NCBI RefSeq assembly: GCF_002754475.1
Contig: NZ_PEFL01000001.1
Coordinates: forward strand, 1,054,001-1,118,000
Direction: 5' to 3'
From: Comamonas sp. 26
GTDB taxonomy: Bacteria; Pseudomonadota; Gammaproteobacteria; Burkholderiales; Burkholderiaceae_C
Length of the DNA stretch: 64,000 nt
Both the position numbers and the translations under genes were made by a program. The notes under the pieces were generated by a model, which had not been told where the DNA came from, made no database searches, and worked only from the letters and a program-made list of their open reading frames with translations. Every line of letters starts with the position of its first letter. Position 1 is the stretch's first letter. Below are positions 56,552 through 57,595 of this stretch, in pieces.

Positions 56552-56584
56552 AAAGCCCGCAGGATGAAAGTTCTGCGGGCTTTT
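56552..56584 (+). terminator. Terminator after acnB
   Basis: AAAGCCCGCAG / CTGCGGGCTTT stem with a 10-nt loop, followed by TTGCTTTTTT. Confidence 0.8.
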
Positions 56585-56876
56585 GCTTTTTTACTCCGGC
56601 TGCGATGGCTGCTGCAAACCCGTCTGCGTTTCGGCATTGGCGATCCACGGCCAGAGTCGTAGTCTGACTCAGTCAAAAAAGTGAGCTGCAAGCGCCCGCC
56701 ATTCAATAGGAGTAGGAGTGGTTTCATATCGAAATCCAGATTTGATAGGCGCTGCGAGCTATGTTTTTCGTTATACCAACCATGTCCTTCGGCGGATAAC
56801 TTTGTCTGGGGCAACAGAGATAATTTCGAAGCTTTAAAATCCACGGCTGCGCCGCGCTGGCGCACTCTTCGCAACC
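56585..56876. other. Gap before yhhQ leader
   Basis: No gene seen over 292 bp. It should contain the promoter of yhhQ; its 3' end runs into the predicted riboswitch. Confidence 0.5.
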
Positions 56877-56910
56877 ATGGGTTCCCTCGCCCCCATAGAC
56901 CAAAAAGGAC
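56877..56910 (+). promoter_or_regulatory. Predicted preQ1-I type riboswitch in the yhhQ leader
   Basis: ATGGG (56877-56881) pairs with CCCAT (56892-56896) to form stem P1 around a 10-nt loop, TTCCCTCGCC. The A-rich tail ends AAAAAGGAC (56902-56910), where GGA can pair with TCC of the loop (56883-56885) to close an H-type pseudoknot. The C just before the second P1 arm is where preQ1-I switches recognise ligand. The same GGA is the Shine-Dalgarno site of yhhQ (ATG at 56915). This fits the compact preQ1-I class and the gene it usually controls. Confidence 0.65.
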
Positions 56911-56914
56911 TGTC

Positions 56915-57595
56915 ATGACATCCGCTCATGCCGTGCAGACGCCATCGTCGCGCCTGCCGCTATACCTCTCGCTTCTGGTGGTGTTCCACATCGCCATCGT
57001 CATCGCCAGCAACTATCTGGTGCAACTGCCGATCACGCTGCTGGGCTTTCACAGCACCTGGGGTGCCTTCAGCTTTCCGTTCATCTTCCTGGCCACCGAC
57101 CTGACCGTGCGTCTGATCGGTAAGGTGGAAGCACGGCGCGTCATCACACGGGCCATGTTGCCTGCGCTGCTGGTGTCCTATGTAGTGGGCGTGCTGTTCC
57201 ATGACGGCCGCTTCAATGGCTGGGACACGCTGGAGTCCTTCAACAGCTTTGTGTTTCGCATCGCTCTGGCCAGCTTTGCTGCCTATGTGTTGGGCCAGTT
57301 GCTGGACATTCAGGTGTTCGACCGCATTCGTCAGAAAAGCCATGCCTGGTGGTTGGCGCCTGCCGCTGCCTCGGTGTTCGGTCAGCTGCTGGATACGGCA
57401 GCTTTCTTCTCGATTGCTTTCTGGAACAGCACCGATGCTTTCATGGCCGCCAACTGGATGGAAATCGCCATGGTCGATTACGTCATCAAGCTGGCTGTGA
57501 GTCTGCTGCTATTCGTTCCTGCCTATGGCGTGGTGCTGGCCACGATTGTGCGCAGCATGCGCATGCCGGCAGCGCCAGCGGCTGTTGCGCCCTGA
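56915..57595 (+). CDS. yhhQ: YhhQ, queuosine precursor transporter
   Basis: 226 residues from ATG 56915. COG1738/DUF165 family with six to seven membrane segments; LLVVFHIAIVIASNYLVQLP at the start, FIFLATDLTVRLIGKVEARRVI and the later DTAAFFSIAFW are typical. YhhQ imports preQ0/preQ1, precursors of the tRNA base queuosine. The frame is open to 56681, but that part is not protein-like. A preQ1-like riboswitch overlaps its ribosome-binding site. A terminator follows. Confidence 0.9.
   Translation: MTSAHAVQTPSSRLPLYLSLLVVFHIAIVIASNYLVQLPITLLGFHSTWGAFSFPFIFLATDLTVRLIGKVEARRVITRAMLPALLVSYVVGVLFHDGRFNGWDTLESFNSFVFRIALASFAAYVLGQLLDIQVFDRIRQKSHAWWLAPAAASVFGQLLDTAAFFSIAFWNSTDAFMAANWMEIAMVDYVIKLAVSLLLFVPAYGVVLATIVRSMRMPAAPAAVAP

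What the first reader, a model, noticed from the sequence alone, without database searches (positions are those of the whole stretch)
56877..56915. preQ1-I-like riboswitch that covers the yhhQ ribosome-binding site
A 5-bp stem (ATGGG/CCCAT) with a C-rich loop and an A-rich tail ending in GGA fits the smallest riboswitch class. The GGA can pair with the loop TCC, and it is also the Shine-Dalgarno site, 5 nt before the yhhQ start. The gene makes a transporter for the same ligand, so ligand binding would shut off import translation. All parts are present within 34 nt.
Basis: partly seen in the sequence, partly recalled or inferred. Interest (0 to 1): 0.7.

Follow-up and report, generated by a model that had tools for sequence, protein, structure and literature searches.

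The report
Tiny preQ1 riboswitch before yhhQ
A 33-nucleotide RNA switch in front of a Comamonas queuosine-precursor importer gene is very probably a real relative of one already solved in E. coli, with one extra base in its sensing loop; it is a known kind of switch that the standard RNA library misses.

Summary
The feature is real. Window 56877-56909 carries a 5-bp P1, a pyrimidine loop UUCCCU..., and a tail AAAAAGG that is the Shine-Dalgarno site of yhhQ (start 56915). It is a preQ1-I riboswitch of the type III kind, whose E. coli yhhQ example has a crystal structure (PMC10622847). Rfam has no match at the site, but Rfam also misses the E. coli element, so that test cannot decide. A covariance model from Alcaligenaceae and E. 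coli leaders finds the site at 37.7 bits, next 12.5. The element stands, compact or with a long linker, before 109 of 130 distinct yhhQ leaders in a set biased to relatives, with compensatory P1 changes. In the genus, 31 of 53 genomes have a model hit, exactly the 31 with a close YhhQ. The window's copy departs from the described type III by one extra loop base and G in place of gatekeeper A13. The mechanism (preQ1 buries the SD, lowering import) is inferred by homology. Some relatives carry linkers up to 169 nt.

The parts
56877..56881 (+). P1 5' strand, AUGGG
   Evidence: pairs with 56892-56896; compensatory changes in relatives
56882..56891 (+). pyrimidine-rich loop UUCCCUCGCC (L1, anti-SD strand, L2); 10 nt where E. 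coli has 9; G at 56889 where E. coli has A13
   Evidence: E. coli numbering from PMC10622847 section 9
56885..56887 (+). anti-Shine-Dalgarno CCU, P2 5' strand
   Evidence: homology with E. coli C9-G30, C10-G29, U11-A28; part of the search anchor, so no covariation could be seen
56892..56896 (+). P1 3' strand, CCCAU; the specificity C is expected just before it at 56891 (or 56890)
   Evidence: role by homology
56897..56901 (+). variable linker (AGACC) at the start of L3
   Evidence: length 0-46 nt in 106 leaders; 165-169 nt in three more
56902..56909 (+). A-rich L3 end and Shine-Dalgarno site AAAAAGGA; AGG 56906-56908 is the P2 3' strand
   Evidence: with the tail not demanded, 109 of 110 leaders with loop and P1 have AAAGG downstream
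56915..57595 (+). yhhQ, 7-cyano-7-deazaguanine/preQ1 transporter, 226 aa
   Evidence: NF008406 328 bits, TIGR00697 188 bits, both over cut-off
56848..56864 (+). short hairpin TGCGCC/GGCGCA upstream of the riboswitch, possibly near the 5' end of the mRNA
   Evidence: lineage-specific, see Noticed in passing
56835..56840 (+). -10-like TAAAAT (weak candidate promoter element)
   Evidence: such a site ends 36 nt before P1; no full sigma-70 match

Best explanation
A preQ1-I riboswitch of the type III kind that controls translation of yhhQ. When preQ1 is scarce the tail is free, AAAAAGGA binds the ribosome and the importer is made. When preQ1 is plentiful it is bound between P1 and P2: the loop cytosine next to P1 (56891, or 56890) pairs with it, loop U56882/U56883 and tail A56905 hold its edge, and P2 (C56885-G56908, C56886-G56907, U56887-A56906) buries the Shine-Dalgarno site, lowering import. 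Shown here: sequence, homology, P1 covariation, position at the yhhQ start, conservation. Inferred from the E. coli structure and assays (PMC10622847): ligand, pocket, P2, repression.
For: R2, a model from six Alcaligenaceae leaders and E. coli, finds 56876-56908 at 37.7 bits, next 12.5. The E. coli leader reads AUUGGG-UUCCCUCAC-CCCAAU-GGUUAAUC-AAAAAGG; its linker matches the one quoted in PMC10622847. 106 of 130 distinct yhhQ leaders hold the compact anchor and 3 more an extended form. Over 11 classes (stem plus loop length) 52 of 55 P1 pairs are standard, shuffles mean 42.3, sd 1.9, 0 of 20,000 reach it; sliding the 3' strand drops 525 of 530 pairs to 230-323. In the genus, 31 of 53 genomes have R1 hits (E up to 0.1), the same 31 that have YhhQ at E below 1e-80 (sets compared). 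In G017 (L029) queC overlaps the yhhQ stop by 4 nt, so the element heads a yhhQ-queC pair. The own genome has queC and queF.
Against: Rfam gives no hit at the site; a whole-genome RF00522 search gave 6 sub-threshold matches (best 16.3 bits), none at yhhQ. The dinucleotide before the P1 3' strand is CC, not the AC described for type III, and A13 is G. P2 has no covariation support. Folding alone does not stand out (z = 0.62): the minimum-energy structure has a shifted P1 register, though the centroid has the 5-bp P1. The bare pattern could occur by chance. I found no binding or expression data for a Comamonadaceae leader (0 papers; library limited to open papers).
Confidence: 0.93

Rival explanations
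1. The AUG inside P1 starts a 13-codon leader peptide (56877-56918, MGSLAPIDQKGLS, stop overlapping the yhhQ start as ATGA), and conservation reflects translational coupling rather than a riboswitch.
For: The ORF is there, and 31 of 106 leaders have a P1 AUG whose stop overlaps the yhhQ start as ATGA.
Against: 12 of 106 leaders have no AUG in P1, and in the remaining 63 the frame runs on or ends elsewhere. P1 changes keep pairing (TTGGG/CCCAA, TCGGG/CCCGA, ACGGG/CCCGT, GAGGG/CCCTC). No Shine-Dalgarno-like purine run is visible in the 25 nt before the window's P1 AUG.
Confidence: 0.03
2. The inverted repeat ATGGG-N10-CCCAT is a DNA operator for a protein repressor, and the tail is just a strong ribosome-binding site.
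For: It is an inverted repeat just before the gene; yhhQ is reported as a PurR-regulon member (PMC5372724, passages seen).
Against: Arms change sequence while keeping pairing, whereas the loop UUCCCU is kept (the loop was the search anchor, but P1 was not): the reverse of what an operator would show. Loop, P1 and tail persist together even across a linker of 165-169 nt. The E. coli homologue has a solved preQ1-bound RNA structure (PMC10622847).
Confidence: 0.02
3. A decayed riboswitch: the extra loop base and A13-to-G have abolished ligand binding and only the ribosome-binding site is still under selection.
For: A13 contacts U11 in the E. coli pocket ceiling and the E. coli aptamer tolerates mutation poorly (PMC10622847 sections 9 and 13).
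Against: The 10-nt loop occurs in 56 of 106 leaders and under four family labels, P1 stays paired, and G13 is itself common (41 of those 56): not the pattern of decay.
Confidence: 0.02

Closest known systems
preQ1-I type III riboswitch of E. coli yhhQ (PMC10622847; abstract, sections 8, 9, 13 and find-passages read)
   Same: Same gene, same position over the Shine-Dalgarno site, P1 hairpin, loop beginning UUCCCUC, A-rich L3, AAGG in the tail.
   Different: Window loop has 10 nt instead of 9 (one extra C) and G instead of A13; P1 one pair shorter; linker 5 nt instead of 8.
Rfam RF00522 PreQ1 (preQ1-I with the UUCGuAA...UC loop)
   Same: Same fold class and same pathway: found directly before yhhQ in L162, L171 and L172 (47.7-52.5 bits), and several hundred nt upstream on the yhhQ strand in nine more loci (50.9-55 bits).
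   Different: 12-nt loop with UUCG and UC before the P1 3' strand, tail AUAAAAAACUAAGgA (consensus). The model does not reach the window or the E. coli type III element.
preQ1-I type II (Tte, Bsu), as described in PMC11625349 (find-passages) and PMC10622847 section 9
   Same: H-type pseudoknot, cytosine specificity base, A-rich L3.
   Different: Longer loop containing purines; in Tte only the first two SD bases are buried.

Membership tests
preQ1-I riboswitch (class I) | 5-6 bp P1 hairpin | tested here: met
   AUGGG/CCCAU; 52 of 55 pairs standard over 11 classes
preQ1-I riboswitch (class I) | A-rich L3 tail ending in the P2 3' strand | tested here: met
   AAAAAGG in the window; 109 of 110 leaders with loop and P1 have AAAGG downstream when the tail is not demanded
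preQ1-I riboswitch (class I) | Specificity cytosine directly 5' of the P1 3' strand | tested here: met
   C56891 with P1 drawn at 5 bp
preQ1-I riboswitch (class I) | H-type pseudoknot, P2 pairing | tested here: inconclusive
   Complementary CCU/AGG present, but both strands were part of the search anchors, so no covariation could show
preQ1-I riboswitch (class I) | Binds preQ1 | not testable with these tools
   needs in-line probing or ITC
preQ1-I type III | UU flanking the P1 5' strand and pyrimidine-rich short loop | tested here: met
   UUCCCUC
preQ1-I type III | AAGG Shine-Dalgarno upstream of yhhQ, able to pair with the loop | tested here: met
   AAGG 56905-56908, 6 nt before the yhhQ ATG; occlusion itself inferred
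preQ1-I type III | AC dinucleotide before the P1 3' strand | tested here: not met
   CC with 5-bp P1, GC if the extra C is bulged from P1; wording of the feature from PMC11625349. Hence filed as a variant of type III, not a plain member
Rfam RF00522 | Score at or above 39 bits | tested here: not met
   no match at the site; E. coli type III also has none, while L162, L171, L172 score 47.7-52.5 bits

The most novel reading that the evidence does not exclude
The 10-nt-loop, G13 form is a distinct sub-type with changed ligand choice. The extra base falls beside C12, whose phosphate is proposed to make the E. coli switch prefer preQ1 over preQ0 about 138-fold (PMC10622847 section 13), and G13 replaces the proposed gatekeeper A13. 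G13 is seen only with the 10-nt loop (41 of 56 against 0 of 50; related sequences, so not independent counts). Such a switch could sense preQ0, which YhhQ is reported to import, as well as or instead of preQ1.
Probability: 0.13. Interest if true: 0.5.

Novelty: new variant of a known kind. Interest (0 to 1): 0.3.

Why it matters
It confirms, from raw sequence, one of the smallest natural riboswitches in a lineage for which my searches found no report, and shows that Rfam's preQ1 model missed every type III element I gave it, the E. coli crystal-structure example included. The loop variants are a natural mutation series at the residues proposed to separate preQ1 from preQ0, and the 33-169-nt linkers are natural tests of how far the pseudoknot's strands can be parted.

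Tried and rejected
Rfam as a test of the claim: rejected as uninformative, because the E. coli type III element also scores nothing while three yhhQ leaders of the same order score 47.7-52.5 bits.

Leader-peptide and operator readings: see rivals. My first impression that L047, L049 and L052 had lost the riboswitch was wrong: P1 and loop lie 165-169 nt upstream of the tail. R1 matches not at yhhQ (G065 and G366; G637, G667 and G773; second matches of G034 and G035) were read and left as chance; several look like coding sequence, but I did not identify them by a search. A first alignment of 9- and 10-nt loops (A1) misplaced the extra base and was not used; A2 was dropped for tail misalignment. 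In one search, 13 loci not holding YhhQ (L001-L006, L123, L125, L134-L138) were left out before the count.

The original description of type III (McCown 2014) is not held, so whether its 293 sequences include Comamonadaceae or 10-nt loops could not be checked. Literature searches. (Comamonas, Acidovorax) listed 0 papers; one search listed 2 and one search listed 6, of which only PMC3766115 was opened (passages). Of PMC5372724 and PMC11625349 I saw passages only.

Full report
What is there. Window 56877-56909 reads AUGGG UUCCCUCGCC CCCAU AGACC AAAAAGGA, followed by 5 nt and the yhhQ AUG at 56915. The ORF 56915-57595 is YhhQ by NCBIfam NF008406 (328 bits, cut-off 252). The neighbours are acnB upstream, with a terminator-like hairpin at 56552-56583, and bacterioferritin downstream on the other strand. 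The genome is 4.7 Mb in 3 contigs; the closest named YhhQ relatives are Comamonas.

Is it more than chance? The bare pattern is weak evidence: 13 of 60 order-1 random windows contain one, and folding does not stand out (z 0.62). Homology is strong evidence. Leaders of YhhQ relatives show the same P1, loop and tail. A model from nine leaders without the window (R1; L036 is from the window's genus by handle, and L100 from its family by recalled taxonomy) finds it at 37.7 bits, next 11.7. A model from six Alcaligenaceae leaders (family recalled for some) plus E. coli (R2) finds it at 37.7 bits, next 12.5. E-values are rough.

How widespread. Of 162 loci with YhhQ, 130 leaders are distinct by sequence; 106 hold the compact element and 24 do not. 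The anchor demanded G-UUCCCU and a run of at least four A plus GG within about 80 nt, but no P1 pairing. With the tail not demanded and at least 4 of 5 P1 pairs demanded instead, 110 of 130 leaders match: the 106, the three long-linker ones (L047, L049, L052; 165-169 nt), and L153, which has no AAAGG tail and is left as chance. Of the 24 without the compact form, three are the long-linker ones; three (L162, L171, L172) have an RF00522 riboswitch directly before yhhQ; nine have an RF00522 match several hundred nt upstream on the same strand, the sequence just before yhhQ in some of them reading like the end of another gene; nine showed neither. The set is biased to close relatives of the window.

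By sample. Genus: R1 hits 31 of 53 genomes at E up to 0.1, the same 31 that have YhhQ at E below 1e-80; 21 of the other 22 have only a distant match and one none. Two of the 31 (G034, G035) have a second, weak match elsewhere. Class: YhhQ (NF008406, E up to 1e-60) is in 14 of 369 genomes; R1 at E up to 0.01 hits 8 of 369, six of them at YhhQ, and reading leaders adds three weaker ones (L142, L148, L150): 9 of 14 type III kind, 1 of 14 RF00522 (L144), 4 neither. Order: YhhQ is in 23 of 399; R1 hits 8 of 399, five at YhhQ; with L168 and L174 the type III kind stands before 7 of 23, RF00522 in 11 of 23 (three adjacent, eight further upstream), neither in 5.

P1 is a real helix. Stems include AUGGG/CCCAU, UUGGG/CCCAA, UCGGG/CCCGA, ACGGG/CCCGU, GAGGG/CCCUC and GCUGG/CCAGU with 5 standard pairs, and CUGAG/CUCGU, CUGGG/CCCAU and UUGGG/CCCAU with 4. 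Over 11 classes (stem plus loop length) 52 of 55 pairs are standard; shuffling partners gives 42.3 (sd 1.9), never 52 in 20,000; sliding the 3' strand drops 525 of 530 to 230-323. The choice between 9- and 10-nt loops was made by best pairing, which favours the true data a little, and the sequences are related. P2 (CCU/AGG) was part of the anchors, so it rests on homology.

What it is. E. coli yhhQ carries AUUGGG-UUCCCUCAC-CCCAAU-GGUUAAUC-AAAAAGG, the preQ1-I type III riboswitch with a 2.3 A structure (PMC10622847). There A27 of the SD touches preQ1, C8, U11, A28 and A13 form the ceiling, and C9-G30 and C10-G29 close P2. Type III is described as almost exclusive to Pseudomonadota, with UU after P1, AC before the P1 3' strand and AAGG paired (PMC11625349 passages). 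Rfam 15 finds neither this element nor that of E. coli, even at E up to 10.

How the window's copy differs. Its loop is 10 nt with GCC where E. coli has AC. Among 106 leaders, 50 have 9 nt, all with A13; 56 have 10 nt, 41 with G and 15 with A. The 10-nt loop is seen in the window's family and under three other family labels (f76: L120, L124; f146: L121; f189: L133). So it is a recurring, maintained variant. Because the AC feature is not met, I file it as a variant of type III. Whether it is already in the 2014 alignment I could not check.

How it works. By homology: preQ1 bound, SD buried, less YhhQ. The genome has queC (203 bits) and queF (386 bits), both over cut-off, so it probably also makes preQ1, and the switch would lower import when synthesis or salvage suffices. 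In G017 queC overlaps yhhQ by 4 nt downstream of the element, and in G018 queC lies directly beside yhhQ on the same strand, which ties the element to the pathway.

Linker inserts. In L047, L049 and L052 the linker folds as one long hairpin (-75 to -98 kcal/mol). The three are 74-87% identical pairwise; of 62 consensus pairs, 38 are invariant, 7 change on one side, 4 on both, and 13 are broken in at least one. The tip of the L047 insert matches three other places in its own genome (L179, L182, L185; 76-83% over about 60 nt) and one in the genome of L049 (L184; 96% over 56 nt); L179 and L182 fold as long hairpins. This suggests a dispersed palindromic repeat that landed in the linker. L168 and L174 have 46- and 33-nt linkers with a predicted hairpin.

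Verdict. Interest is modest and lies in the loop variant, the Rfam gap and the linker inserts.

Noticed in passing
L047, L049, L052 (yhhQ leaders of Acidovorax sp. MR-S7, Comamonadaceae CD01, Diaphorobacter nitroreducens): The riboswitch is split by a 165-169-nt hairpin linker between P1 and the A-rich tail; the hairpin tip resembles other places in the genomes of L047 and L049.
   Followed up: partly
L168 (G792) and L174 (G619): Linkers of 46 and 33 nt with a predicted hairpin between P1 and the A-rich tail.
   Followed up: partly
L162, L171, L172; and L144, L154-L156, L158, L160, L161, L170, L173: yhhQ loci with RF00522-type preQ1-I riboswitches instead: directly before yhhQ in the first three, several hundred nt upstream on the yhhQ strand in the other nine, perhaps heading an operon with an upstream gene. 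So the two preQ1-I kinds share this gene within one order.
   Followed up: partly
window 56848-56864 and relatives among L008-L026: A short hairpin (TGCGCC/GGCGCA; TGCGTC/GACGCA in L012) about 12 nt before P1; some other Comamonas leaders have a different hairpin there. A -10-like site ends 36 nt before P1 in 10 of 104 distinct upstream stretches, against mostly 13-25 nt in others.
   Followed up: partly
L029 1453-2864: queC start overlaps the yhhQ stop by 4 nt behind the riboswitch: a yhhQ-queC pair in this genome of the genus.
   Followed up: yes
window 56877-56918: P1's AUG opens a 13-codon ORF whose stop overlaps the yhhQ start as ATGA; not conserved in frame across leaders.
   Followed up: yes
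Rfam RF00522: The curated PreQ1 model did not detect the type III elements it was given (window, L076, L117 of E. coli, L142, L119), the crystallised E. coli kind included.
   Followed up: yes
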